Positions 502-12,898 of a stretch of 35,582 nucleotides of DNA are shown piece after piece; the stretch's first letter is position 1, and each line of letters opens with the position of its first letter. The notes beneath the pieces are model-generated. The model was not told the DNA's origin and ran no database searches. It saw only the letters and a program-made list of their open reading frames with translations. The DNA comes from Nitrospira sp. Lineage in GTDB: Bacteria; Nitrospirota; Nitrospiria; Nitrospirales; Nitrospiraceae. Both the position numbers and the translations under genes were made by a program. The DNA lies in NCBI GenBank assembly GCA_024281365.1, contig JAMXAU010000010.1:1-35582 (forward strand), read 5' to 3'.

Positions 502-917
502 CCGCAGAGGTGTTGGATGCCATAGGTGGTCTCACCGCCCATGTTAAAGCCTATGCCGCGATCCTTCCCTCGTTCGTGCATTTGAAGGCCGTGCCGTCCG
601 GCGTGAAACCTTCCGCGGAGGCGATGGACAGCTATGAGGTGATTGTCACACGAACACAACGTCAAAGTGCAGGCACTCCATACAAGGGCCTCAATGAATC
701 ATTTGTCTGTTCTTTGGAAGCCTTCGAGCAGGGGAATCTGATCGGCACCGTCCAAGCGCTCCTGACCGTAATCGACCAGCTTGAACGCATGCAACGGGAT
801 GAAGAGATTGAAGTCAGACGAGCGGACGAGAAGCGACTCACGGAATACCGCGTGGCCCTCCGGAAAGTGCTTCCCGGCAACCAGCCGGAATTAGCAGAAA
901 CGGGTAGAGGCTTGTAG
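495..917 (+). CDS. Conserved hypothetical protein coupled to the pseudouridine synthase gene
   Basis: A 140-codon gene whose ATG overlaps the stop of the upstream gene by 7 nt (ATGCTGA), with a GAGGAG ribosome-binding site at about 486-491 that supports this start. The protein is soluble and looks helical; a charged segment near residues 95-118 (QLERMQRDEEIEVRRADEKR) could form a short coiled coil. No signal peptide, membrane segment or catalytic motif is visible. I do not recognise the family. The overlap implies co-expression with the pseudouridine synthase, but not a shared function. Confidence 0.7.
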   Translation: MLTAEVLDAIGGLTAHVKAYAAILPSFVHLKAVPSGVKPSAEAMDSYEVIVTRTQRQSAGTPYKGLNESFVCSLEAFEQGNLIGTVQALLTVIDQLERMQRDEEIEVRRADEKRLTEYRVALRKVLPGNQPELAETGRGL

Positions 918-926
918 GGGGCAATG

Positions 927-989
927 GTGAGTTATGGGTGCTGAGTTCTTAGTTTTTCTGAGAAGCTCAACTCATACCTCAACACTCAC
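927..989. repeat. Imperfect low-complexity inverted repeat
   Basis: Two GTGAGT-rich arms (about 927-945 and 966-989) are approximate reverse complements of each other. They lie between the end of the plus-strand gene at 917 and the end of the minus-strand zinc-ribbon gene at 1012. The convergent position suits a bidirectional terminator, although there is no clean GC stem followed by a T tract. Confidence 0.4.
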
Positions 990-1011
990 GACTGAAAACT
1001 CGTCAACGTGG

Positions 1012-1191
1012 CTAGTGCCCCATCTTTGGTCCTAACGCATTGGATCCGGTCGTGACCAGCTTGAATCGCGCAAGGGTCCCACAGTGGGGGCACTTCGCAC
1101 GAACCGTTTCAGCGTCGAGTATCTCGTACTCTTCCGCTCGTAACCACATGAGTTGGAAGCATTTGGAACAGGTACGGACTTGCGTTGACAT
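1012..1191 (-). CDS. Small zinc-ribbon protein
   Basis: A 59-residue protein with two CxxC pairs (C8/C11 in CSKC and C34/C37 in CPHC), spaced as in a rubredoxin-like or zinc-ribbon fold that binds one metal ion. The frame could extend upstream to 1269, but the ATG at 1191 follows a GAGGA site at good spacing and is the better start. Between the cysteine pairs is a segment with ILDAETVRAK. Such small ribbon proteins usually act through protein or nucleic-acid contacts; no specific function can be read here. It is divergent from the GNAT gene that begins at 1241. Confidence 0.7.
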   Translation of the reverse strand: MSTQVRTCSKCFQLMWLRAEEYEILDAETVRAKCPHCGTLARFKLVTTGSNALGPKMGH

Positions 1192-1240
1192 TGGTTTCCT
1201 CGTACACTCCAGATCAATCCGAGGGATACTGTAGTATAAG

Positions 1241-1672
1241 ATGCCTCCAACCCTCAAGCCTGCTGTCACCTATTCTCATCATGAACTTCCCGAAGCGGCA
1301 CAGCTTCTTGGACTCTTTCAACAGGCTCCATGGGCGAAGGATCGAACCCTGGCTGACGCAAAGGAAATGCTTGAGCATACGGATCTCGCCATTTGTGCCC
1401 GGGATAGCGAGCGACTGATTGGATTTGGACGCGTCCTCACGGATTTTGTCTATCGGGCGACGATTTGGGATGTGATTGTCGATCGGGCCTATCAAGGGCA
1501 GGGGATTGGCACAGAGATCGTCAAACGAATTCTTCATCACCCTCAACTGCAACGGGTCGAACTGTTTTGGCTTTGTACCAGACGCCCAGGTTTCTATGAG
1601 CGACTCGGCTTCAGTTCCAAAGAACAGACTGGTATGGTCTGGAGCCGAAGCAAGAACAGTCGATCCGAATAA
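1241..1672 (+). CDS. GNAT-family N-acetyltransferase
   Basis: A 143-residue single-domain protein. The acetyl-CoA pyrophosphate-binding loop is visible as DRAYQGQGIGTEIVKRIL (residues about 82-99), matching the family's Q/RxxGxG/A motif, and the C-terminal PGFYERLGF is the usual motif B region. It should transfer an acyl group from acetyl-CoA to an amine, but the substrate cannot be read from sequence. The length is normal for a small GNAT. The ATG at 1241 has no strong ribosome-binding site. It is convergent with the outer-membrane protein gene at 1753. Confidence 0.85.
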   Translation: MPPTLKPAVTYSHHELPEAAQLLGLFQQAPWAKDRTLADAKEMLEHTDLAICARDSERLIGFGRVLTDFVYRATIWDVIVDRAYQGQGIGTEIVKRILHHPQLQRVELFWLCTRRPGFYERLGFSSKEQTGMVWSRSKNSRSE

Positions 1673-1752
1673 GAACGACCGATAAGAATGCTGCAGTCTT
1701 TTACTCGGTGATGAGAGCAGATCCTGCCGTCAGCTCCGGTCTAGTTTCGCGC

Positions 1753-2385
1753 TTAGAAGAACATCTTCCCACCAAATAAGAACCCAAAGGAAGAGGCGTT
1801 CCAATCGTTGTTCCGGCCACCGGTGCCGGTCGTATGCCCATCGTTCCGCTTATAGGCCCACTCCACGTTAAGGGCGAACCGTTCGTTGAGTTTGTAATCA
1901 GTGCCCCACCCCAATCGCCAGGCGAAGGTATTACTCGGGCTAATCCGAACTGCGGTCTCCTCGCCAAAGCTGTTCACGTTGACGCCGAAGCTCATATTCA
2001 CATAGGGGCTGAGCGGACCTGACCTGGCTGGGCGTATTTCGATGGTCGGTAGAACCGAAACGGTATCCTGGTGCCCAAGGTCCACGTCCGGCTGTTCCAC
2101 GCTCACTCCATGGCGCTCCCACTCGAGCATCATGCCCACCAAGAACCAGGTATTGAGGCTGTACATCGCTTGGAAGTTCACCAGCGGACCAATTGAAGTA
2201 GACCTGCCTTCCGACAGCTGTTGGGTCAGTGGTGCGAATCCGGCACGAAAGCCAAGTACCACCCTGCCGGCCTCAATTCCTCCAAACTCTTGCGCGGAAG
2301 CGGTCGTGGAAAAGGGAAACAGTGAGAACAATACAATGAACAGCATGGCGGCCACCATTGATGATGGCAGTACTTCATGGAGCAT
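1753..2385 (-). CDS. Outer-membrane beta-barrel protein downstream of the metal ABC transporter
   Basis: A 210-residue protein with a signal peptide (hydrophobic core at about residues 10-24, cleavage near TTASA-QE). The mature part has alternating polar/hydrophobic strands and aromatic girdle residues, and ends in a terminal Phe (GGKMFF), as expected for a BAM-inserted barrel. The length suits an 8-stranded OmpW/OmpA-transmembrane-type barrel. The start is uncertain: ATG at 2385 or the in-frame ATG at 2358. The likely permease stop lies only about 10 nt upstream, so it is probably the last gene of the metal-uptake operon, where a metal-related outer-membrane role is plausible but unproven. 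Its first codons are included in the duplicated segment described at 2354-3130. Confidence 0.75.
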   Translation of the reverse strand: MLHEVLPSSMVAAMLFIVLFSLFPFSTTASAQEFGGIEAGRVVLGFRAGFAPLTQQLSEGRSTSIGPLVNFQAMYSLNTWFLVGMMLEWERHGVSVEQPDVDLGHQDTVSVLPTIEIRPARSGPLSPYVNMSFGVNVNSFGEETAVRISPSNTFAWRLGWGTDYKLNERFALNVEWAYKRNDGHTTGTGGRNNDWNASSFGFLFGGKMFF

Positions 2386-2666
2386 AACACGGTGGCTAAT
2401 GAGAGTGAACGACTCCTGTGCGTCTTACTCGCTTAGGTGAGAAGAGAACCGCCGCAAAGAATATGGCGGTCGCCAACAGCACAATCGCCGGCCCTGAGGG
2501 AACGTCCCAGATGGCGGAAATCAAGACTCCTACGACCGAGGTTGTGATTCCGAAGAATGCAGAATACAGCGTCAAGGTCCTCAGGCTATGTGTGAGTTGA
2601 TAGGCCGTCGAAGCCGGAATCAGAATCATGGCGAAGACGAGAATGGCCCCCACTGTCTTGAGCGAG
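2354..2666. repeat. Junction duplication, copy 1 (permease 3' end plus barrel-protein 5' end)
   Basis: About 310 bp nearly identical to 2822-3130, in direct orientation. This copy is contiguous with the intact barrel-protein gene and carries the undamaged frame for the last 89 codons of the ABC permease. Differences from copy 2 are a few substitutions plus several 1-3 nt indels. Confidence 0.9.
2396..2665 (-). pseudogene. Detached C-terminal fragment of the metal ABC permease
   Basis: This frame encodes the normal C-terminus of a ZnuB/TroC-type permease, from SLKTVGAILVFAMILIP to a basic tail ending VVHSH. It has the two final hydrophobic helices and stops 10 nt before the barrel-protein ATG. 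The upstream 33 nt of the open frame (to 2698) are unrelated spacer. Joined to the permease at 3130-3690 it would give an ordinary protein of about 285 residues, so this is either a duplicated remnant or the true 3' end displaced by an assembly error. Confidence 0.75.
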
Positions 2667-2821
2667 TTCCTTGATCCATTGCCCACGCATCCCCACACCT
2701 CCGTTCCCCTCGTGAAAGAAAATCCCTTGAGCTGTTAAGCCGGGAAGACCCGTGCAGTACTGGCGTTTGATGACACTGTCGATACGACAACTACCCAATC
2801 CTTGGACAACTCAGCATACAT

Positions 2822-3130
2822 CCATTGATTATGGCAGTACTTCATGGAGTTACAGGTGGCTAATGAGAGTGAACGACTCCTGTGCGTCTTTACTCGCTTA
2901 GGTGGAGAGAACCGCCGCAAAGAATATGGCGGTCGCCGACAGCGCAATCGCCGGCCCTGAGGGAACGTCCCAGATGGCGGAAATCAGAGACTCCTACGAC
3001 CGAGGTTGTGATTCCGAAGAATGCAGAATACAGCGTCAAGGTCCTCAGGCTATGTGTGAGTTGATAGGCCGTCGAAGCCGGAATCAGAATCATGGCGAAG
3101 ACGAGAATGGCCCCCACTGTCTTGAGCGAG
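2822..3130. repeat. Junction duplication, copy 2
   Basis: Direct repeat of 2354-2666. This copy is contiguous with the rest of the permease gene, but its coding frame is shifted by one extra base near 2986-2990, and the start codon of the barrel-protein gene is lost (GTAACTCC instead of ATGCTCC on the minus strand). The 155 bp between the copies (2667-2821) match neither gene and hold no convincing ORF. Confidence 0.9.
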
Positions 3131-3690
3131 ACAACGACGGTGAGTGCAACGAGAGTCAGCAACAGAAAAAACATTTGCCGAGCCGGAACGCCGGAAGCTT
3201 CGGCCATTTCCTGATCGAACGCAATGAAATAGAGTTCTTTGGCAAACAGGAGCAGCAAGCTCAACACCAGCACGCTCAACGCACCGATGATACGCAGCTC
3301 TTCAGGCGTGACGGAGAGCACGCTGCCGAAGAGATAGCCGTAGACCTCTGCATTATAGCTCTTCATCAGTCCGATAAAGAGGATGCCCAGTGCCATGGTC
3401 GTCGTGTACAGAATGCCGATGGAGACATCCAGCTTCATCCTGCCGCGCTCTTCAACCCAGCCGGTGATCCAAACTGTCGCTAAGCCAAAGACAATCGCCA
3501 GTAGCAGTGGTGGCCAGCCCATCAGGTAGCCAAGCGCTACACCTGCAAATGCGGCATGGGACGTTCCCGCACCGACGAAGGCCAGTCCCCGTAGGACCAC
3601 AAACACACCGATGATCGAACAGAGCCCACCGACCATCGCTGCAGCGAGGAGGGAGCGTTGCATGAAATCGTAGGCGAGAAGATCGAGCAT
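2890..3690 (-). CDS. Zn/Mn-type ABC transporter permease (ZnuB/TroC family), frameshifted at the C-terminus
   Basis: Polytopic membrane protein of the ABC-3 permease family: the N-terminus (MLDLLAYDFMQRSLLAAAM), the GLAFVGAGTSHAAFAGVALGY region and repeated hydrophobic helices match ZnuB, MntB and TroC proteins. It should form the membrane channel for divalent metal imported with the ATPase and binding protein encoded just upstream (15 nt after the ATPase stop). Residues up to TTSVVGV align with the undamaged fragment at 2396-2665. After that, a one-base insertion sends the frame into an unrelated, non-hydrophobic tail, so the last two helices would be lost as written. Whether this damage is real is unclear. 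Confidence 0.85.
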   Translation of the reverse strand: MLDLLAYDFMQRSLLAAAMVGGLCSIIGVFVVLRGLAFVGAGTSHAAFAGVALGYLMGWPPLLLAIVFGLATVWITGWVEERGRMKLDVSIGILYTTTMALGILFIGLMKSYNAEVYGYLFGSVLSVTPEELRIIGALSVLVLSLLLLFAKELYFIAFDQEMAEASGVPARQMFFLLLTLVALTVVVSLKTVGAILVFAMILIPASTAYQLTHSLRTLTLYSAFFGITTSVVGVSDFRHLGRSLRAGDCAVGDRHILCGGSLHLSE

Positions 3691-3705
3691 GATGAGTCGT
3701 TGTTC

Positions 3706-4524
3706 TTAGTGGTGATGATGGTAGTCTTCGACGATGACGAGGTCTTTCTCGGTAATCACAAGCTCTTTCCCGTAGACTTGGTGAAGGATCTCCGGCTTGA
3801 GAACTTCGGCTGGAGGGCCGGCGGCGTAGAGCCTGGTTTTGAGGAGCACGAGTCGATCCACTCTCGACCGGATCATATTAATATCATGCGTGATGAGCAA
3901 CACCGTCAGCTTGAGTTCGTCATGAAGATGCTGGACGAGCTCAATGACGTTGTGCTGCATGGTGATATCCAATCCGGTTGTGGGCTCATCAAGGATGAGC
4001 ACTTTGGGTTGCTGTGCCAATGCCCTCGCGATAAAGACTCGCTGCTGCTGCCCGCCCGATAGATGGCCGAGCGCCGTATCTTTGTGCGACTCCATGCCGA
4101 CCTGGGTGAGGGCTTCCATGGCGATGTGACGATCCTTCATCCCTGGCCGCTTCAGAAGCCCTAGTGCTCCATAACGGCCCATCATGACTGTCTCGAGAAC
4201 TGTGACGGGAAAATTTCGATCAACCACTCCCTTTTGCGGAAGGTATCCGATCTGGGCCCGGTGGTGGCAGCGGAGTTCACTGCAGGCACAATCAAAGATA
4301 TGAAGATGCCCTTCCATTGGAGGAAGCAATCCCAACACGGCGCGGCAAAGTGTTGTTTTGCCTGATCCGTTTGGACCGATCACGCCAACGAACTCGCCGT
4401 CGTAAATGGGCAGGGAAATATCCTTGAGCGCAATCAGCCCTGGAAAACCGAAGGACGCATGATCGAAACGGATGATCGGACTACGACCGGTAGACACGGA
4501 TCCCTCTGTTCCCTCCGGAGGCAT
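3706..4524 (-). CDS. Zn/Mn-type ABC transporter ATP-binding protein (ZnuC/MntA-like)
   Basis: A 272-residue ATPase with all core motifs: Walker A GPNGSGKT (50-57), Q-loop Q97 in YLPQ, signature LSGGQQQR (155-162), Walker B VLILDE (175-180) and H-loop H213 in ITHD. It powers import of a divalent metal through the permease encoded 15 nt downstream; the binding protein gene ends 22 nt upstream. The protein ends in four consecutive histidines (DYHHHH), which could bind the transported metal, although a short His tail can also be neutral. No strong ribosome-binding site precedes the ATG at 4524. Confidence 0.93.
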   Translation of the reverse strand: MPPEGTEGSVSTGRSPIIRFDHASFGFPGLIALKDISLPIYDGEFVGVIGPNGSGKTTLCRAVLGLLPPMEGHLHIFDCACSELRCHHRAQIGYLPQKGVVDRNFPVTVLETVMMGRYGALGLLKRPGMKDRHIAMEALTQVGMESHKDTALGHLSGGQQQRVFIARALAQQPKVLILDEPTTGLDITMQHNVIELVQHLHDELKLTVLLITHDINMIRSRVDRLVLLKTRLYAAGPPAEVLKPEILHQVYGKELVITEKDLVIVEDYHHHH

Positions 4525-4546
4525 GAATGGATTTCATGAGCGGTTG

Positions 4547-5506
4547 CTAGGTGGATTCCAACGCGCCAACTAATTGGAGCACATTGTAACGAAGCATGTC
4601 GAGGTAACTGTCAGTTCCCGGAATTCCACCCGGCATCGTGGTCAGCACAACTACACGTGCTTTGGTGTCTCGTGACAGCAGTTCTGGAAGCCGTTGGCTC
4701 AGCTGAATCTCTGAGGCGATGACCCGAATATGATGGCTGTTAATCTTCGCAATCAACTGCTGAAGGTGAAGGGCGGAGGGTTCTATGCCTGACTGGGTGT
4801 GGATCGTGTCGACGATCTGAAGGCTAAATCGCTTGGCGAGGTAGGGCCAAGCCGGATGATGTGCGATGAAACGCCGGTCCGAGAGGCGTTGAGTACGCTT
4901 CATCAGCTCCTGTTGTACTTGCGCGAGTCGTTGCAGATAGGCGTCCTGATTCGCTTGAAAATCGGCTGCATGAACCGGATCAACGTCGATGAGGGCTCGG
5001 GTGATGTGGCGCAGCATGATGCTGACATTCACGGGATCCAACCAAATATGTGGATTTCCTCCAGATTCGGCGCCATGCGTGCCCGGATGGCTTTCTTCGT
5101 GGATCTCCCCATCGTCAGGAAGAAGCTCGACGTCCTGGGATGTTGTGATGACGCGCAACCTGGCACTTCCGGCATTTTTCACCAACGACGTGACCCAGAC
5201 TTCAAGCCCAAGGCCGACTTCGAACAGGAGCTGAGCCTTGCGGACTGCGACCAAATCACTGGGTTTTGGTGAGTAGGTATGTTCGTTTTCATAACCGCTC
5301 AGCAAAGACTTCACCTGTACAAACGGACCACCGACCTGTTCGGTCAGGTCTTTTAAGACGGGAATGGTGACGACGATAGGAATTGGCTCACGAGCGTCGG
5401 TTGCGGAGATGGAGACGGCAGAACATAGAGCGAGCATCAGGAGAGAAAACCGAATACCCAACCTGCATGTATAGGTGGTAGGAAACATCGGCGGCGACCG
5501 TATCAT
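4547..5506 (-). CDS. Zinc/manganese ABC transporter substrate-binding protein (ZnuA-like)
   Basis: Periplasmic metal-binding protein of cluster A-I. A signal peptide is followed by IPVLKDLTEQVGG. Expected metal ligands are visible: His in HTYSPKPSD, His in NPHIWLDP, His in HHPAWPYLAKRF, and an Asp near the C-terminus in PGTDSYLDM. A short His/Glu-rich loop (EIHEESHPGTHG) just before PHIW is typical of zinc-specific members. The frame is open to 5710, but residues before the signal peptide do not look like protein; ATG at 5506 or 5488 is likely, neither with a strong ribosome-binding site. First gene of the metal-uptake operon, divergent from anmK. Confidence 0.9.
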   Translation of the reverse strand: MIRSPPMFPTTYTCRLGIRFSLLMLALCSAVSISATDAREPIPIVVTIPVLKDLTEQVGGPFVQVKSLLSGYENEHTYSPKPSDLVAVRKAQLLFEVGLGLEVWVTSLVKNAGSARLRVITTSQDVELLPDDGEIHEESHPGTHGAESGGNPHIWLDPVNVSIMLRHITRALIDVDPVHAADFQANQDAYLQRLAQVQQELMKRTQRLSDRRFIAHHPAWPYLAKRFSLQIVDTIHTQSGIEPSALHLQQLIAKINSHHIRVIASEIQLSQRLPELLSRDTKARVVVLTTMPGGIPGTDSYLDMLRYNVLQLVGALEST

Positions 5507-5750
5507 CCAGGTTTTCGCTCTGTCAACGCTATCTTGAGCGTGCCCATCAAGAACGGCACAGTCCGTGTCGGGATGAGGCGGCAACTTGATCATATGGTCG
5601 AGAACCGAGCAAATCCAGAACCACACTCGCAGGTTTTTGCAATCTCTTGATTGGCCCTGGCCATTCGTCTCCTTGACCATCTTCGTGAGTTCGATTAGCG
5701 TAGCGCACACAGCCCATGAGACGTGGTATGGTCAGGAAAGGATATCGCTC

Positions 5751-6941
5751 ATGAAGGTCGTTGGGCTCATGTCGGGAACGTCTGCCGATGGCGTTGATGC
5801 TGCATTAGTGTCAATTGTTCGGAAAGCAACTCGACTTGAGGTGGAGATGGGAGCATTTTATTCGCTTCCCTATCCGCGCTCGCTCCAACAGCGACTTCTC
5901 TCCGCATCGGTATCAGGGACGGTCGCCGATCTGTGCCATCTGAATGCGCTTCTGGGGGAATGGTTCGCTGATGCCGCGCTGGGAGCGATTCGAGCCGCTC
6001 AGTTAACAACAGAAGAGGTTGATCTTATTGGGTCTCATGGCCAGACTGTGCACCATTTGCCGAATGGAATTAAGGATACGCGGGTTGGGGCGATCCGGTC
6101 TACCCTCCAAATTGGCGAGCCCGCGGTGATTGCTGAGAGGACTGGAATTACAACGGTCGCCAATTTTCGCCCCCGCGATATTGCCGCTGGTGGACAGGGA
6201 GCGCCGCTGACGCCTGGTATCCATGCCTTGCTGTTTCAACATCACCGCCGAGGGCGACTCATTGTCAACCTTGGGGGGATCAGCAATGTCACCTACCTGC
6301 CGCGTGGAGCCGGAGGGGACGGGTTGATGGCATTTGACACGGGTCCGGCCAATATGGTCCTGGATGGCATTATGTTCCGGAGCACGAATGGCCGTTTTAC
6401 CATGGACCGCGATGGACGCCTCGCGGCCAAGGGTCGGGTCGATTCAAGATTGTTGGCCAAACTGTTGGCCTATCCATATCTCTCTCAGGCGCCTCCCAAA
6501 TCGACCGGTCGGGAAATGTTTGGGGAGGCCATGCAGACGGAGTTACTTAGCTGGCCGCAGGCGCGCAAACTATCGGTCGAGGATCTGTTGGCCACCTGTA
6601 CACGATGGACTGCTGAGGCCGTCGGCACGGCACGGCGCTGGGTTAAAGGTGGAATCGACGAAGTGATCGTCGGCGGAGGCGGAGTGAAAAACCGGGCAAT
6701 TATGGAACATCTGAAGGCTGTGTTTGCTCCGGTTCCGGTCACCACCTTTGAGGCGCACGGCTGGGATAGTAAAGCGCTGGAGTCGGTGGCCTTCGCGATA
6801 TTGGCCTATCAAACGGTGATGGAGCAGTGCGGGAACGTTCCGGCGGTGACAGGCGCAGCGTCTCCCAGGCTGTTGGGGTGTATTGTTCCAAGTGGGCCGG
6901 GATGGTATGAGCGATTACATCCAGGTCGACGGAGAAAGTAA
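5751..6941 (+). CDS. anmK: Anhydro-N-acetylmuramic acid kinase
   Basis: A 396-residue sugar kinase. It opens with MKVVGLMSGTSADGVDAAL, the diagnostic N-terminal motif of AnmK, and later shows GSHGQTVHH, FDTGPANMVLDG and VGGGGVKN, which form the substrate and ATP sites. The enzyme cleaves and phosphorylates 1,6-anhydro-MurNAc to MurNAc-6-phosphate in cytoplasmic recycling of peptidoglycan. The ATG at 5751 follows an AGGAAAGGA site; an in-frame TTG extension to 5586 is rejected because the family starts at this motif. No murQ or nagZ lies nearby. The next gene begins 6 nt after the stop. Confidence 0.96.
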   Translation: MKVVGLMSGTSADGVDAALVSIVRKATRLEVEMGAFYSLPYPRSLQQRLLSASVSGTVADLCHLNALLGEWFADAALGAIRAAQLTTEEVDLIGSHGQTVHHLPNGIKDTRVGAIRSTLQIGEPAVIAERTGITTVANFRPRDIAAGGQGAPLTPGIHALLFQHHRRGRLIVNLGGISNVTYLPRGAGGDGLMAFDTGPANMVLDGIMFRSTNGRFTMDRDGRLAAKGRVDSRLLAKLLAYPYLSQAPPKSTGREMFGEAMQTELLSWPQARKLSVEDLLATCTRWTAEAVGTARRWVKGGIDEVIVGGGGVKNRAIMEHLKAVFAPVPVTTFEAHGWDSKALESVAFAILAYQTVMEQCGNVPAVTGAASPRLLGCIVPSGPGWYERLHPGRRRK

Positions 6942-6947
6942 ACGACG

Positions 6948-7457
6948 ATGAAGCTTCTACTGCTTGTGACGGTCCTCACCTTGATCATCTTCGGTATCTG
7001 GTGGTATCGAAGGCGAGCGCGCCGAAGCAAGAAAGAGGTGTCGCGCAGTATGATGCCTTCTGATGTCACCCTCAGCCCGACTCCGCTCTTGGCCGAAGAC
7101 GAAGTGGCGCTCTATAACCTCCTGCGAATGGTCGTCCAAGAACGCTATCTTGTCTTTGCCAAGGTGCCGCTCGGCTCATTTCTCACGGTCGATGCGGGGG
7201 GGAAGGAACGGGTCCAGGTCCTCCGTCATCTTGCCCTGAAGCGGGTTGACTTTGCGTTGGTGCACCCAGGATCACGTCAAGTTGAACAGGTGGTGCAGAT
7301 TGAACCTCAATCCCCTGAACTCCACCAGGTGGAATCACAACAAATCATCGAGTCCTTGCTTGATACGGCAGGGATCAAACTGAGGAAGCTTCAGGCCAAG
7401 AAGACGTACCCTCTCGCACATCTAGCCACTCGACTGGAAATCACTGCAGACGATTAA
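6948..7457 (+). CDS. Membrane-anchored DUF2726-type protein
   Basis: A 169-residue protein with one N-terminal membrane helix (residues about 2-19) followed by a basic stretch (RRRARRSKK), so the body should be cytoplasmic. The domain at about residues 50-165 has EVALYNLLRMVV, YLVFAKVPLG and LKRVDFALVHP, which resembles DUF2726, a fold related to restriction-endonuclease-like domains. Nothing here proves nuclease activity. It starts 6 nt after anmK and is probably co-transcribed with it. Confidence 0.75.
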   Translation: MKLLLLVTVLTLIIFGIWWYRRRARRSKKEVSRSMMPSDVTLSPTPLLAEDEVALYNLLRMVVQERYLVFAKVPLGSFLTVDAGGKERVQVLRHLALKRVDFALVHPGSRQVEQVVQIEPQSPELHQVESQQIIESLLDTAGIKLRKLQAKKTYPLAHLATRLEITADD

Positions 7458-7599
7458 GCTCTGTACCAATCGAGCTGCCCAACGAGGCGGGTGTTGTAAT
7501 AATGGTGGGGAGGTATCTTCACCGGGATTTCTTGCCTTGATCGCTCTGCGGGTACCTCTTCCTTCCGAGCCAGCAAACTTTTGATTGATCAGGTTGGAG

Positions 7600-8094
7600 C
7601 TACGGCGACGATGTGGAGGGCTCTTCGCTGGGGGACAGCGCTTCAACCGCCTTGCGCGCAACTTCTGCTTCGGGACTTTCCGGATATTGATCGATAACAC
7701 GATCGAACATCAGACGGGCCTTCTCTTGATCTCTCAGTTTGATATAGGTCTGGCCCAGCTTGAGAGTCGAGGCGGCCAACTTTGGGCTGAGCGGGTAATT
7801 GGACACGACGTCGTAGAAGGACTGTAAGGCGTCCTGATATCGCCGAGTACGAAACTGGCATTCTCCAATCCAGTATTGCGCGTTGGCTGCCAGTGCGGAT
7901 TGACCGTGGAGCTCAATGAAAAGGCGAAAACCGGCCATTGCCGCTTCGTAGTCGCGGTGTTTGAATTCCTCCATGATGCGATCATAGAGATGACGAGGTG
8001 CATCCTGACGCTGCGCAGGGGCGGCAAATGGCTGACCTGCAGAGAAAACAATAACGAGCATGAGGAGGATTCCAACACCTTGTCTAGCTGCCAT
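7600..8094 (-). CDS. CpoB/YbgF-like periplasmic TPR protein
   Basis: A 164-residue protein. The signal peptide (MAARQGVGILLMLVIVFSAG, cleavage near PFAAPA) is followed by about three tetratricopeptide repeats in the YbgF arrangement, with YWIGECQF and FYDVVSNYPLSPKLA segments typical of the C-terminal domain of the Tol-Pal co-ordinator. The ATG at 8094 follows GGAGG at 6-nt spacing, which rules out the longer frame to 8205. Unlike E. coli CpoB it lacks the N-terminal trimerising coiled coil. No tol or pal genes are in the window, so it may serve another envelope complex. Confidence 0.8.
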   Translation of the reverse strand: MAARQGVGILLMLVIVFSAGQPFAAPAQRQDAPRHLYDRIMEEFKHRDYEAAMAGFRLFIELHGQSALAANAQYWIGECQFRTRRYQDALQSFYDVVSNYPLSPKLAASTLKLGQTYIKLRDQEKARLMFDRVIDQYPESPEAEVARKAVEALSPSEEPSTSSP

Positions 8095-8283
8095 ATCAGG
8101 CCTCCATCGGTTCAACCGAAGTCGAGTGGGTTGTAACGCAATCGGTATGCCAAGCATATGGAGAAGCGGGAGAGGGAAGCGCTGAAAAAACAGGGTCTTG
8201 CGCAAGCCCCTGTATGAGAAAATGAGTACATTGTCGGCAACGGATTATGCAGGACACAGAATTGTACAAGATGGTCTGCCTAC

Positions 8284-8550
8284 TCAAATCACCACAATGT
8301 AATCACCAGCGCAAAGACCGGAGAGGGTCTTCTCCCGGGAGTGCAGTATGCCGAACGATATTCTGTCGCTTGCTGGTCCAAATACATTGGTCCTGATGTT
8401 ATCCAATAGACAAACCGCCTCATTAAGACCCCGCAACGCCTCACTCGCCCTCCATCGGCCGCTCAGCTCCTCGCGTCTTTTCCAAGAGAGCACTAGCGAA
8501 CCTGCACGGCTGAGCGCCAGTGACAGACGACGACCCATCAATTTTGACAT
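8284..8550 (-). CDS. Doubtful 88-residue ORF downstream of the diguanylate cyclase
   Basis: An ATG-started frame whose first codons overlap the last 13 nt of the diguanylate cyclase gene in another frame. The protein has no signal peptide, membrane segment or recognisable motif, and an opposite-strand frame (8348-8572) is about equally open. It may be a coupled small gene, a fragment of an older gene, or chance. Apart from it, 8095-8537 holds nothing I can identify. Confidence 0.25.
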   Translation of the reverse strand: MSKLMGRRLSLALSRAGSLVLSWKRREELSGRWRASEALRGLNEAVCLLDNIRTNVFGPASDRISFGILHSREKTLSGLCAGDYIVVI

Positions 8551-9461
8551 GTCGAGGATTGTGAATCGTTAGGAATGTGAAACTGAAACGAGTTACCGCC
8601 TTGCTGTTTCGCGCGGTACATTGCGGCATCGGCATGTGTTAATAGTTCATCGATATCATGGTCGTCGGTCGGATAAATGGTGATGCCGATACTGACGCTG
8701 ATCACGGCCTGGTGTTCTCCAAGTATGAACGGTTCGGAGAGGGATGTGGTGATTCGTTGGGCCACCAATGAGATATCCTCCTCGCACATCAAGCCTTCTA
8801 GGATGATGGTAAACTCATCTCCCCCCATGCGCGCGACGGTGTCCACTTCACGAACACATTCATGGAGTCGTTCAGCCACAACTTTCAACAGTTGATCACC
8901 GACACTGTGGCCGAGCGTATCGTTCACCGGCTTGAATCGATCCAGGTCAAGCAGCATCAGTCCGAGCGGCTGCTGGAGGCGCTTACTTCTTGCCATGGCT
9001 TGCACGAGTCGGTCGCGGAACAAGCTGCGGTTCACGAGTCCGGTCAGCTGATCGTACTGGGCAAGGTACGTGAGTCGTGCTTCCGCACGTTTTCGTTCGA
9101 TTGCGTAATGGATTGAGCGGGCCAAGAGTTCCGACGGACCTTCTCCCTTCACGAGATAATCCTGTGCTCCATTTTGGACCGCTTGCAAGGCCAGCGTTTG
9201 ATCGTTGAGCCCGCTGAGTACAATCAGTGCAATGGTCGGATTCGCTGCGTGAATCTGTCGAACCGTTGAGAGCCCGGACCCATCCGGGAGCGAAAGGTCC
9301 AAGAGCACAGCATCAAATCGAGCTCGAGCGAGATAGCGGAAGGCCTCACTCAGGCGTGTCACATGGGTGATATTGAATTCTTCCAGGTGCCACTCTGCAA
9401 GGATATCCTGCGTCAGACGAGCATCGACATCATTGTCTTCAACTAAGAGAATCTTGATCAT
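8538..9461 (-). CDS. Response regulator with REC and GGDEF domains (diguanylate cyclase)
   Basis: A 307-residue protein. The receiver domain (residues 1-120) has acidic residues in VEDND, the phospho-acceptor D55 in LLDLSLPDG and K105 in DYLVKGE. The GGDEF domain (about 135-295) has an intact GGDEF active site at 213-217, preceded five residues earlier by RxxD (REVD), the inhibitory c-di-GMP-binding I-site. It should make c-di-GMP from two GTP molecules when phosphorylated and be product-inhibited. No partner histidine kinase is adjacent, so the signal is unknown. The ATG at 9461 fits the family N-terminus. Confidence 0.95.
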   Translation of the reverse strand: MIKILLVEDNDVDARLTQDILAEWHLEEFNITHVTRLSEAFRYLARARFDAVLLDLSLPDGSGLSTVRQIHAANPTIALIVLSGLNDQTLALQAVQNGAQDYLVKGEGPSELLARSIHYAIERKRAEARLTYLAQYDQLTGLVNRSLFRDRLVQAMARSKRLQQPLGLMLLDLDRFKPVNDTLGHSVGDQLLKVVAERLHECVREVDTVARMGGDEFTIILEGLMCEEDISLVAQRITTSLSEPFILGEHQAVISVSIGITIYPTDDHDIDELLTHADAAMYRAKQQGGNSFQFHIPNDSQSSTCQN

Positions 9462-9520
9462 GCCCAGTCCGGGTAGCCCCGCCGCTTACTGCCTACAACC
9501 TATTCTTCGGATATGTATCA

Positions 9521-9548
9521 AGTATAGCGTAAGGCTCTGATACAACAA
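9521..9548 (-). promoter_or_regulatory. Possible sigma-70 promoter for the REC-GGDEF gene
   Basis: On the minus strand TTGTTG (9548-9543) is followed after 16 nt by TATACT (9526-9521), five of six matches to the -10 consensus, about 60 nt before the start codon. The -35 match is weak. Confidence 0.3.
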
Positions 9549-9898
9549 GCAAATGGTTGAAGTGGTGACAGCCAACACGGTATTGGGGGAGGACGTAATC
9601 TCAGGCCGACATGATTCTTAAAATAGGAGACCCGCCTCTAACGCGGGGCTGGAATAAGAGAGGGCGTATAGAAACAAGCACTCGCCATGATGATCAGGAG
9701 GTCAGGCCGCCGCAACATCAAGATAGTGAGCCAACGGCTGATGAGAGGTCGGGAGCTGATGGATTCCAGATGACTGTGGGGGAGGGGAGAGATTGAGGTT
9801 AAGAGGTGCGTAGTGCCGAGAGCTGTACATCAACGTGAGCAGCGGTGGTAGGGACTGTGGATTATAGAGAGAGAGGGGAGCAAGGCTTAGTTGCGTGA
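9549..9898. other. Intergenic region without a recognised gene
   Basis: Only short, biased-composition frames are present (for example a 66-codon minus-strand frame rich in Leu, Pro and Ser). A small CCCGC/GCGGG stem lies near 9632-9649. The stretch from about 9770 to 9890 is purine-rich on the plus strand. I see no gene or RNA signature. Confidence 0.4.
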
Positions 9899-10240
9899 TC
9901 ACGATCCACGAGAACCGGTAGGCAGAGCGCCTGGGTATGTTCCGATTGGGGGTTGCTCAGGACCAAACGCCGCTTCACAAGCATACCCTGGTTGAAAGGG
10001 CCAGAGAAGTGAACGGCCCACGTCATTCCCTCGGATGTGAATATATCGCAATGTCATACCCATGCGAGCTGCTTCGTCCTTCACCTTTTCAGTACAATCC
10101 TGCGCAGAGTAGCCACGGCGTGAAATCAGCAAGGGAGCACCGGAACCACTGAGCACAGAATATTCGTTGATACACCCATTGAGGCTAAAGAAGAGGCAGA
10201 GAAGACCGGTGAGGCAAATGAGCCCTTTTCTTGAAGCCAT
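9899..10240 (-). CDS. Small lipoprotein of unknown function
   Basis: A 113-residue protein beginning MASRKGLICLTGLLCLFFSL and continuing NGC: a type II signal peptide with lipobox LNGC and the lipidated cysteine at residue 23. The mature part is small, with two further cysteines (in DCTEK and YACEA) that could pair, and a Pro/Gly-rich C-terminus. In-frame starts at 10297 (ATG) and 10312 (GTG) are possible, but the lipobox position favours 10240. I do not recognise the family. Likely anchored to the inner leaflet of the outer membrane. Confidence 0.65.
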   Translation of the reverse strand: MASRKGLICLTGLLCLFFSLNGCINEYSVLSGSGAPLLISRRGYSAQDCTEKVKDEAARMGMTLRYIHIRGNDVGRSLLWPFQPGYACEAAFGPEQPPIGTYPGALPTGSRGS

Positions 10241-10559
10241 CGGGAGACGAAATCTGCTGTCTCTGAACGCCCTGCAAGAGGTCGACTCACTGCTCATACC
10301 TAACCATACCACGAAAGCATTGTCCCAAGCGACCGGATAGATCTATCACGTGTAAGCCAGTGGAATCGTCATCCTGGTGAATGTGGAGCTGTGAATCAGC
10401 TCGATATGAGCCGCGATCGGTCTCCTTCCCAAAGATGAAGAATCCTCCTATTGTGGGCAATTCCTCATCAACGACAATGAAAGAGATGGGAAAACGCCTT
10501 CTGTATGATCGCTGATGGTAGGAAAAGAAAGGGAGTAACGACCCGAACGGTACGATAGG
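10241..10559. other. Intergenic region, nothing recognised
   Basis: No ORF with coding character, no tRNA cloverleaf and no strong terminator was seen. It separates two minus-strand small genes. Confidence 0.4.
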
Positions 10560-10757
10560 TTAGACCGGCTTTTCCGCGACGTACTCCATGTACTTCCAGA
10601 ACAGCTTCGCTTCCTCTTCGTTCAGCACCACCGGGGTATTATTCGCAGTTCCAGTCATAAACACCTTGACCGACACCGTATCGTGCCAGGCCTGAACTTC
10701 ACAATGAGAAACCAAGTCCAGGTTGATGGCCCGGTTTCCGATACGGACAAAATGCAT
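10560..10757 (-). CDS. Small conserved-looking protein, 65 residues
   Basis: A 65-residue cytoplasmic protein preceded by a GGGAG ribosome-binding site at 8-nt spacing. It begins MHFVRIGNRAINLDLVSHCE, then has a short strand-rich centre (VSVKVFMTG) and ends with LNEEEAKLFWKYMEYV. This pattern (beta strands, then a helix beginning near NEEEA) is typical of small stand-alone bacterial domains that read like a two-strand sheet plus helix, often found as uncharacterised proteins. Function unknown. It is divergent from the MotA/TolQ-like gene 266 nt away, so the two could share a control region. Confidence 0.65.
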   Translation of the reverse strand: MHFVRIGNRAINLDLVSHCEVQAWHDTVSVKVFMTGTANNTPVVLNEEEAKLFWKYMEYVAEKPV

Positions 10758-11023
10758 GGCTGATCTCCCATCACCTCACAGGCGACGGGATAATCATACA
10801 CGAAGGTCTCTCTGTCTGGAAGTAACGGACTCTTCTCCTTCCCGATGTTCAACCCGATGCCTAAGCCTGGAAGAACGTGCCGATCTGCTCGGCAGGAAGT
10901 GCCGACTGTGTTGTCAGGTCATGACGAGAATCCCCAATAAACAGTGGTTCTGCGCTGGCACGAAAGTTGAGCTGAGTGGTCTGGTTATCCCTGTGTTCCG
11001 TGTCTGAATAAGGGTGCAGCAAA

Positions 11024-12241
11024 ATGGATACGACAAGTGGGTGGAAGACGGCAAACGGCTTATGGGAATTCGTCACTCAGGATGTAGCCATCATCAGCGG
11101 GTTGTCCAGTCCAGTACTGAGCTGGATCGGCATGGTGGGGATTCTTGCCATGTGCGGCTGGCATGGAGCCGTCCTTCTTCGTGGAGCCTGGCGGATTCGA
11201 CAGGCGTTGTGTCGGGTGCAATCACAGGTGTCGAGCCTTCTCGTCGCTCGCCGGCAATGGTCAAAGGAGTGGATTGTCACACTGACGTTGGGGAGAACAA
11301 GGCCCCGTTCAGATGAGTCGCAACAGTCACAACGCGATCTCGATGATCTCCACGTGTTGGATCGGGCCATGCGTGCGGAACCGGCATTTGCCGCAGAGTG
11401 GCTTTCCTACCGAAAGACCTTTGCCATCGAACAGTCGGCCTGGTTTCTTGAGCCGACGGTCTCTGCGCAAAAACCGGCTGCAGAATTCTTCTCCTTTGAA
11501 GCCTCCATGGCGGAATACCTCAATGTCGGGTTCTATCGGCAACTCCCGTCATTTCTGACCGGTATGGGACTGACGTTCACGTTTCTGGCGATTCTTATCG
11601 GCCTGAGCAAACTTCATGCAAACGGCTCGCAGGTTGAAGGCATCGCGGGTCTCATTAACGGGCTCTCGGGAAAGTTTGTCACATCCATTGCCGGTTTGGC
11701 TTGTGCGAATGCGTTCACTCTTTTGGAAAACTCCGTTTGGTATCGCCTGAGTAACCGACATCGACGGTGTCTCTCGCTGCTCGATGAAGTCTTTCCTCAA
11801 CGGATCGTGGATCAACATGCCCAGTCTTTAGCCGTGCAGACCGAGCAGGTGTCAACCATCGTCGGTCCTACCAGGAGCGACGGTGACAAACAATTGGCTG
11901 AAGTCGTGCACCATCGACTCGGTACGGCAGTAGCCGCCTTAACGAAGGTGTCAGAGTCTCTCACCGCGATGAGTGCGACTCAACGTAGTTCAACGGTGGA
12001 CGATCTTCCCGGAGAGATTGGTCATGAGGTTCAAAAAGCATTGAAGCGGGTGACTCAGCCTCTGGTAGATGCGATCCAGGATCTCAACCGAACCATGAAA
12101 GGGCAGGCGCCTCCGGTACAGCTCTCAAAATCAGAAATGGAAACCATATTTCAGGAGCTGAAGACCCATGGAGTGGCTGTGCACGATACTTCCTCTGTCA
12201 AGACGGGGAGCAGTGGGAACAGCACGCCTCATCAGGAGTAA
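11024..12241 (+). CDS. MotA/TolQ/ExbB-like proton-channel subunit, ZorA-like
   Basis: A 405-residue inner-membrane protein with three predicted helices: about 31-53, 175-196 (FLTGMGLTFTFLAILIGL) and 206-234 (GLSGKFVTSIAGLACANAF). The last two carry the small-residue/Thr pattern of the MotA/TolQ/ExbB fold that lines the ion path. The 120-residue cytoplasmic loop between helices 1 and 2 and a tail of about 165 residues with heptad-like stretches (VQKALKRVTQPLVDAIQDL) recall ZorA of Zorya, but the tail is much shorter than the several-hundred-residue ZorA tail. The partner gene starts 15 nt downstream. Start supported by AAGGG at about 9-nt spacing. It should couple ion flow to movement or force on the partner complex; the process is unknown. 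Confidence 0.8.
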   Translation: MDTTSGWKTANGLWEFVTQDVAIISGLSSPVLSWIGMVGILAMCGWHGAVLLRGAWRIRQALCRVQSQVSSLLVARRQWSKEWIVTLTLGRTRPRSDESQQSQRDLDDLHVLDRAMRAEPAFAAEWLSYRKTFAIEQSAWFLEPTVSAQKPAAEFFSFEASMAEYLNVGFYRQLPSFLTGMGLTFTFLAILIGLSKLHANGSQVEGIAGLINGLSGKFVTSIAGLACANAFTLLENSVWYRLSNRHRRCLSLLDEVFPQRIVDQHAQSLAVQTEQVSTIVGPTRSDGDKQLAEVVHHRLGTAVAALTKVSESLTAMSATQRSSTVDDLPGEIGHEVQKALKRVTQPLVDAIQDLNRTMKGQAPPVQLSKSEMETIFQELKTHGVAVHDTSSVKTGSSGNSTPHQE

Positions 12242-12256
12242 AGCGAGAGTGGACAG

Positions 12257-12898
12257 ATGAGATATCGCAAATGGTCAATGGCACGGGAATCTTCCGTCTC
12301 GCCGTCGGTTGTATTTAGTGGGGTGACTGATCTCATGACCTCGCTCGCCGTGATCTTCATCCTTCTATTTGCCGCCTATGTGAGCCGGGTTCACGAGAGC
12401 CAGGAAAGTCATGCAGAGGGTCCTTCATCTCCAAGAGAAGAACGACCGAACCTTGATCGTCCGCTTCTCCAGCACGAAGCCCACAAGCCAGATGTTTTGT
12501 CTGTCAGTATGCCGGACGTTGCGCTCAGCTTTGACTTTGGAAAGAGTAGGTTACTGCCGCCTGCGGAGGCCTTTTTGTCGGAGATGATGCCACACTATGC
12601 TGCTATGGTATGTGCCCAAGGGGGCAAAGAGGTGGAAGCCTTTGTCATAGAGGGATACACCGATGATCTCGGAGACGACCTCCTCAATTTGCGCTTGAGC
12701 CAGGAGCGATCGTTTGCTGTGTTGGCCAAGAGCGTAGAGATCGTCCGTGAGAAGCTTCCCTGGGCCTACGAATGTTTTCTTCAAAAGGCGACGGCGAATG
12801 GTCGCGGGAGGCAGAATCTTCTACGGGACGATGCAGGAGACCTGGATCGGGAGCGGAGCCGCCGGGTGATGTTCAAAATACACTTGCGCCCTCAGTAA
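12257..12898 (+). CDS. MotB/OmpA-like stator subunit, ZorB-like
   Basis: A 213-residue protein with a single N-terminal membrane helix (about 18-42) containing Asp25 in TDLMTSLAVIFILLF, placed like the proton-carrying Asp of MotB/TolR/ExbD/ZorB. A 45-residue Pro/Glu-rich linker leads to an OmpA-type peptidoglycan-binding domain (about 85-211) with GYTDDLGDDLLNLRLSQERS and DRERSRRVMFKI, including the Asp and Arg residues that bind diaminopimelate. It should pair with the MotA/TolQ-like protein encoded 15 nt upstream and tether the channel to the cell wall. No flagellar, Tol or ton genes and no zorC/D/E are adjacent. Confidence 0.85.
   Translation: MRYRKWSMARESSVSPSVVFSGVTDLMTSLAVIFILLFAAYVSRVHESQESHAEGPSSPREERPNLDRPLLQHEAHKPDVLSVSMPDVALSFDFGKSRLLPPAEAFLSEMMPHYAAMVCAQGGKEVEAFVIEGYTDDLGDDLLNLRLSQERSFAVLAKSVEIVREKLPWAYECFLQKATANGRGRQNLLRDDAGDLDRERSRRVMFKIHLRPQ

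What the first reader, a model, noticed from the sequence alone, without database searches (positions are those of the whole stretch)
11024..12898. Orphan ZorAB-like ion-channel pair without known partner genes
Seen: a three-helix MotA/TolQ-fold protein with a cytoplasmic tail, followed 15 nt later by a one-helix protein with an intramembrane Asp25 and an OmpA peptidoglycan-binding domain. Known: this pairing occurs in flagellar stators, Tol/Ton/Agl motors and ZorAB of Zorya phage defence. None of the usual partners (fli/flg, tol-pal, zorC/D/E) is adjacent; the flanking genes are a divergent 65-residue protein and rsmA. The tail is far shorter than in ZorA. Inference: a minimal proton- or sodium-driven envelope motor whose effector is elsewhere or is a new one.
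Basis: partly seen in the sequence, partly recalled or inferred. Interest (0 to 1): 0.7.

Follow-up and report, generated by a model that had tools for sequence, protein, structure and literature searches.

The report
Stand-alone Zorya-type motor in Nitrospira
Most nitrite-oxidising Nitrospira and their relatives carry, as a fixed part of the chromosome, a two-gene membrane motor that looks like the engine of the Zorya anti-virus system but without its long tail and its weapons, and it is found almost only in species that also have a flagellar motor gene, so this engine type seems to have a job other than the known defence.

Summary
A (11024-12241, 405 aa) and B (12257-12898, 213 aa) match ZorA and ZorB best in PADLOC, NCBIfam and PDB searches; MotA/TolQ/ExbB Pfam models do not hit A. 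Channel residues are invariant (A T186 and S221; B D25), as is the peptidoglycan-binding motif of B. The pair is not canonical Zorya: the tail after TM3 is 151-228 aa (403-498 in long ZorA relatives), with no zorC, zorD or zorE beside it. In a 45-row tree the short-tail pairs form one clade (100/99) nested beside long-tailed Zorya I. The pair occurs in 102 of 163 near-complete Nitrospirales genomes, under purifying selection. No third gene stays beside it across genera, so the 65-aa gene and rsmA are not partners.

Two new findings: (1) presence tracks flagellar MotA (94 both, 45 neither, 8 and 16 discordant), also after correcting for phylogeny (6-7 concordant, 0 discordant independent pairs) and genome size; (2) a conserved 14-base box (GGCAYRRAANTTGA) lies just upstream of A across families, and its strict pattern was found nowhere else in 2 million strand-bases scanned.

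Best reading: a stand-alone ZorAB-class ion motor of flagellated Nitrospirales, partner unknown. Defence with an unlinked effector is not excluded.

The parts
11024..12241 (+). ZorA-class motor subunit (A), 405 aa, three TM helices, Zorya-type beta insertion in the TM1-TM2 cytoplasmic loop, short C-terminal tail (about 170 aa after TM3)
   Evidence: PADLOC ZorA1 1.1e-17; PDB sequence best hits ZorA; AF2 model best matches ZorA 8qyh/8qyk/8qyd/8qyy about 1e-8, ExbB/TolQ about 0.02, MotA 0.35; T186 and S221 invariant, aligned with ZorA T147/S184
12257..12898 (+). ZorB-class subunit (B), 213 aa, one TM with Asp25 (TDLMTSL), periplasmic OmpA/peptidoglycan-binding domain
   Evidence: PADLOC ZorB1 6.4e-33; Pfam OmpA; PDB ZorB; Foldseek ZorB 8vvi 2.9e-8; D25, T135, D136, L147, R151, S201-R203 invariant
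10957..10970 (+). conserved upstream box GGCACGAAAGTTGA (family pattern GGCAYRRAANTTGA), probable promoter or operator of the pair; spacing GG-N10-GA resembles a sigma-54 -24/-12 element, but with GA where sigma-54 sites have GC
   Evidence: strict pattern: 30 hits in 2.0 million bases of both strands, all at or just upstream of an A gene; matrix score >= 10 at A in 39 of 40 short-pair loci and 0 of 6 long-ZorA operons
12242..12256 (+). 15-nt spacer between A and B (co-transcription inferred)
   Evidence: A-B adjacency kept in 46 of 46 loci
12005..12187 (+). codons for predicted tail helices, about residues 328-388, low confidence
   Evidence: AF2 secondary structure H328-361 and H369-388, block pLDDT about 47-67

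Best explanation
A and B form a stand-alone ion-driven motor of the ZorAB class, presumably A5B2. Shown: homology, retained channel and peptidoglycan-binding residues, co-inheritance, short tail, absence of Zorya effector genes nearby, a single clade placed beside long-tailed Zorya I, purifying selection, a dedicated conserved upstream box, and co-occurrence with flagellar MotA. Inferred from the ZorAB and MotAB structures: B anchors to peptidoglycan, ions cross at B Asp25 against the Thr/Ser ring of A, and A turns around B, moving a short helical rod of about 170 residues in the cytoplasm. Proposed function: an envelope motor or sensor that serves the motile, flagellated state of these bacteria (for example sensing load or wall strain, or acting on a flagellar or chemotaxis partner encoded elsewhere), not a self-contained phage-defence system. 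The partner is unknown.
For: Family identity. One clade 100/99 beside long-tailed ZorC/ZorD operons. Nearly fixed in its clades: 48 of 54 genus-g1, 25 of 25 g2, 14 of 15 g19/g20 genomes. Largely vertical: 13 of 19 splits shared with rpoB, at most 3 in 1000 label shuffles. Purifying selection on core and tail. No ZorC in the family except in the 3 genomes that have long ZorA; no ZorE in 78 of 79 relatives. The ZorA tail is required for Zorya I/II defence (PMC11890865) and ZorAB alone are not sufficient (PMC8565338). Link to flagella: 94 both, 8 pair only, 16 MotA only, 45 neither, odds ratio 33, Fisher 1.6e-18; independent pairs 6-7 versus 0, median p 0.016-0.031; MotA effect after size p 3.7e-8, seen in all three size classes. 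The G167 locus lost A, has a decayed B, and has no MotA.
Against: No physical linkage to flagellar genes (hundreds of kb to Mb apart in closed genomes). 8 genomes keep the pair without a detectable MotA, two of them with few contigs (G043, G077), and 16 have MotA without the pair. Co-occurrence may reflect a shared free-living lifestyle. The upstream box was not found at comparable score in 20 fetched regions around motA. Deep nodes of the AB tree disagree with rpoB and branch lengths do not correlate (r = 0.12), so some transfer or rate shifts occurred. No expression or functional data.
Confidence: 0.5

Rival explanations
1. A diverged Zorya defence system: the short motor senses wall damage by phage and recruits an effector encoded elsewhere in the genome.
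For: Closest relatives are complete Zorya I operons; peptidoglycan and ion sites intact. Partners in trans cannot be ruled out.
Against: Near-fixed, single-copy, mostly vertical, in changing housekeeping neighbourhoods rather than defence islands; no ZorC, no ZorE; tail much shorter than in systems where the tail is required; tracks flagella.
Confidence: 0.22
2. A general peptidoglycan-gated envelope motor or mechanosensor unrelated to flagella; the MotA link is a shared-lifestyle effect.
For: 8 genomes keep the pair without MotA; no gene linkage to flagella; upstream box not seen near motA.
Against: Association survives phylogeny and genome-size control.
Confidence: 0.22
3. An additional flagellar stator that engages the rotor directly.
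For: Co-occurrence with MotA; same motor superfamily.
Against: No MotA_N or MotA_ExbB domain; fold matches ZorA, not MotA; the genome already has MotC/MotD; no published ZorA-rotor contact known to me.
Confidence: 0.05
4. A decaying leftover of Zorya I after loss of zorC/zorD.
For: Tree position; one decayed copy, G167.
Against: Intact reading frames in about 100 genomes, dN/dS about 0.1-0.28, invariant channel residues, conserved upstream box.
Confidence: 0.01

Closest known systems
Zorya type I ZorAB, long-tailed Nitrospirota/environmental subgroup (L062, L074-L077, L102)
   Same: Same motor clade (100/97); shared motifs such as GLLxTFLAI, GLINGLxGKFxTS and TDLMTSLAVIFILLL
   Different: 612-703 aa ZorA with 403-498 aa tails; operon with ZorD and, where readable, an EH_Signature ZorC; those tested lack the upstream box
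Classical Zorya I (E. coli/Klebsiella, PDB 8QYD; Shewanella 8VVN)
   Same: ZorA core fold, T147/S184-D26 ion site, peptidoglycan-binding ZorB
   Different: Separate clade (100/100); long tail; ZorC and ZorD in operon; E86/E89 calcium-site residues absent in the short clade
Zorya II (S. kujiense 8VVI, E. coli)
   Same: Compact ZorAB, TM Asp, OmpA domain
   Different: ZorE HNH effector in operon; separate clade (98/99); tail still about 280 aa in S. kujiense
MotAB / TolQR / ExbBD / AglRS
   Same: Ion-driven motor superfamily
   Different: A is not hit by PF01618, and no such family scores near ZorA in fold search; true MotCD, TolQ and ExbB are encoded elsewhere

Membership tests
Zorya defence system (any type) | ZorA/ZorB homology with Thr/Ser ring and TM Asp | tested here: met
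Zorya defence system (any type) | ZorB peptidoglycan-binding residues | tested here: met
   T135, D136, L147, R151, R202/R203 invariant, compared with mutational data in PMC11890865
Zorya defence system (any type) | long cytoplasmic ZorA tail (about 280 aa or more in the solved systems) | tested here: not met
   151-228 aa, median 170; S. kujiense residues 100-378, Shewanella 236-696
Zorya type I | ZorC (EH_Signature) and ZorD in operon | tested here: not met
   none adjacent; PF15611 in 3 of 147 family genomes, all with long ZorA. ZorD in trans was not searched
Zorya type II | ZorE HNH nuclease | tested here: not met
   not adjacent; absent in own genome and in 78 of 79 relatives at 1e-5 with E. 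coli ZorE as query
Zorya type III | ZorF (DUF3348) / ZorG | tested here: inconclusive
   0 of 79 genomes, but the control genomes did not ring either; not adjacent in the window
Zorya defence system (any type) | protection against phage | not testable with these tools
   needs experiment
Flagellar stator MotAB/PomAB | MotA_N / MotA_ExbB domains, flagellar locus | tested here: not met
TolQR / ExbBD | TolQ/ExbB family match, tolA/tonB beside it | tested here: not met
   real ones elsewhere
5:2 ion-driven motor class | A5B2 stoichiometry and ion-driven rotation | not testable with these tools
   inferred from the homologues' structures

The most novel reading that the evidence does not exclude
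A ZorAB-class motor has been turned into (or always was) a non-defence machine that works with the flagellated state of Nitrospirales, under its own conserved upstream box. That would be a ZorAB role outside Zorya, and a possible evolutionary link between Zorya and motility motors.
Probability: 0.4. Interest if true: 0.75.

Novelty: new variant of a known kind. Interest (0 to 1): 0.58.

Why it matters
I found no description of ZorAB as anything but the engine of Zorya defence in the papers held. A conserved ZorAB lineage without long tail or effectors is a natural test of what the motor does by itself, what the tail adds, and whether defence or housekeeping came first. Nitrospira are key nitrifiers, and this is an unnamed component present in most of them. 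Homology-based defence finders may flag it as a partial Zorya system.

Tried and rejected
65-aa gene as partner: missing beside the pair in many relatives. rsmA or other neighbours: differ by clade and are unrelated housekeeping genes. Viral or plasmid spread: no short-pair relative in viral contigs, and in plasmids only a weak ZorA hit; the one viral-contig hit, L102, is a full long-tailed Zorya I. Rfam element at the locus: none. Consensus sigma-70 promoter scan: uninformative. Canonical sigma-54 promoter for the box: geometry fits, but position -12 is GA in every site, so not claimed. Genome-size artefact for the MotA link: rejected. The Nature 2025 Zorya paper is not held. Relatives outside Nitrospirota could not be surveyed in depth: only a short-pattern scan and PADLOC/NCBIfam profiles, so restriction to Nitrospirales is not claimed.

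Full report
Observation. A (11024-12241) and B (12257-12898) are as described. Pfam has no MotA_ExbB hit for A, while B has an OmpA domain. PADLOC gives ZorA1 1.1e-17 and ZorB1 6.4e-33. NCBIfam's best hits are ZorA and ZorB models, below their cut-offs. PDB sequence searches return ZorA/ZorB above everything else. AlphaFold2 models (A pLDDT 70, B 73) match ZorA (about 1e-8; ExbB/TolQ about 0.02; MotA 0.35) and ZorB (3e-8). The A model shows strands in the TM1-TM2 loop (133-136, 145-148), consistent with the beta insertion described as Zorya-specific (PMC12505986).

Ion and wall sites. In 70 aligned homologues A T186 and S221 (aligned with ZorA T147 and S184) and B D25 within DLMTSL are invariant, as are the OmpA-domain residues T135, D136, L147, R151 and S201-R203. 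Mutating the ZorB Asp or wall-binding residues abolishes Zorya defence (PMC11890865). The E86/E89 positions, named as a calcium site in PDB entry 8QYH, are not acidic in this clade.

Distribution. In Nitrospirota 95 of 396 genomes hit, nearly all Nitrospirales; the pair is single copy, and extra hits (G319, G333) are long ZorA. In 163 Nitrospirales genomes (at least 90% complete, plus the window's own) 102 have the short pair: 48 of 54 in the window's genus, 25 of 25 in g2, 14 of 15 in g19/g20. It is absent from many other genera. A and B are adjacent in 46 of 46 loci and no third gene is conserved beyond a subclade; neighbours elsewhere include BipA, a PAS kinase, a PilB-type ATPase, a transglycosylase and a tRNA synthetase. 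The 65-aa gene is beside the pair only in part of the genus. In G167 the flanks remain, A is gone and B carries stops.

Evolution. In a 45-row tree the 26 short-tail rows form one clade (100/99) inside a group (100/97) with long-tailed Zorya I relatives; classical Zorya I (100/100) and Zorya II (98/99) are separate. The exact sister is weakly supported (81/66), so the direction of change (tail loss or tail gain) is not proven. The long relatives carry ZorD and, where readable, EH_Signature ZorC. ZorC in the family occurs only in three genomes, all with long ZorA, a positive control for the negative result in the short-pair genomes. ZorE is absent from 78 of 79 relatives. The AB tree shares 13 of 19 splits with rpoB (at most 3 in 1000 shuffles), but deep nodes differ and branch lengths do not correlate. 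dN/dS is 0.10-0.28 overall, and below 0.4 for the tail alone.

Link to flagella. PF20560 (MotA_N) search against pair presence: 94 both, 8 pair only, 16 MotA only, 45 neither (Fisher 1.6e-18). On a 150-genome rpoB tree, independent contrasts go the same way 6-7 times and the opposite way 0 times (median p 0.016-0.031). MotA still explains presence after genome size (p 3.7e-8), and size alone gives no significant contrasts. In genus g7 one genome has both and four have neither. The window's genome has MotC/MotD with cheZ, TolQ with a TolA-like gene and two ExbB/TonB sets elsewhere. The cause of the association is not shown; flagella are patchy in Nitrospira (PMC5767232). MotA was the only flagellar marker tested.

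Upstream box. While testing for a sigma-54 promoter I found GGC-A-Y-R-R-A-A-N-TTGA about 30-100 nt upstream of most A genes across g1, g2, g4, g7, g19 and g20. The strict pattern gave 30 hits in 2.0 million strand-bases; 25 are upstream of A and the other 5 lie at the over-extended ORF start of A. With a matrix, 39 of 40 short-pair loci have it and 0 of 6 long-ZorA operons do. Geometry GG-N10-GA resembles sigma-54 -24/-12, but every site has GA and not GC. It was not found at comparable score in 20 regions around motA. Its factor is unknown. The matrix was trained on these same sites, so the cross-family conservation and the near-absence elsewhere are the evidence, not the scores; close relatives are not independent.

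Mechanism. Known Zorya needs the ZorA tail and effectors (PMC11890865; PMC8565338). A 170-aa tail with no effector nearby, near-fixed in a lineage with a flagellar association, argues against self-contained defence and for a stand-alone motor with another partner. The ion used, the stoichiometry, rotation and the partner are inferred or unknown.

Noticed in passing
window 10957-10970: 14-base box upstream of A, conserved across families; sigma-54-like spacing but GA at -12; factor unknown.
   Followed up: partly
L078 (G167) about 9740-10260: In-place decay of the pair: A missing, B with stop codons, flanking p137, p65 and rsmA kept.
   Followed up: yes
L079, L080 (G319); L081 (G333): Full long-tailed Zorya I operons in Nitrospira genomes that also keep the short pair, two of them in one genome.
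   Followed up: partly
L102 (viral contig) 738-11381: Complete Zorya I operon a little downstream of cas1/cas2-like genes on a contig listed as viral; probably a host defence island.
   Followed up: no
L133 (G245, f2 g16): ZorB-like gene with a ZorE-like nuclease in a genome without the short pair; a patchy Zorya II.
   Followed up: no
window 10560-10757 (-): 65-aa protein, 78-100% identical within part of the genus, no Pfam, NCBIfam or PADLOC hit; strongly conserved and unknown.
   Followed up: partly
window 12257-12898, B residues C119 and C173: Two invariant cysteines in the periplasmic domain of B in the short clade, possible disulfide, not kept in all long relatives.
   Followed up: no
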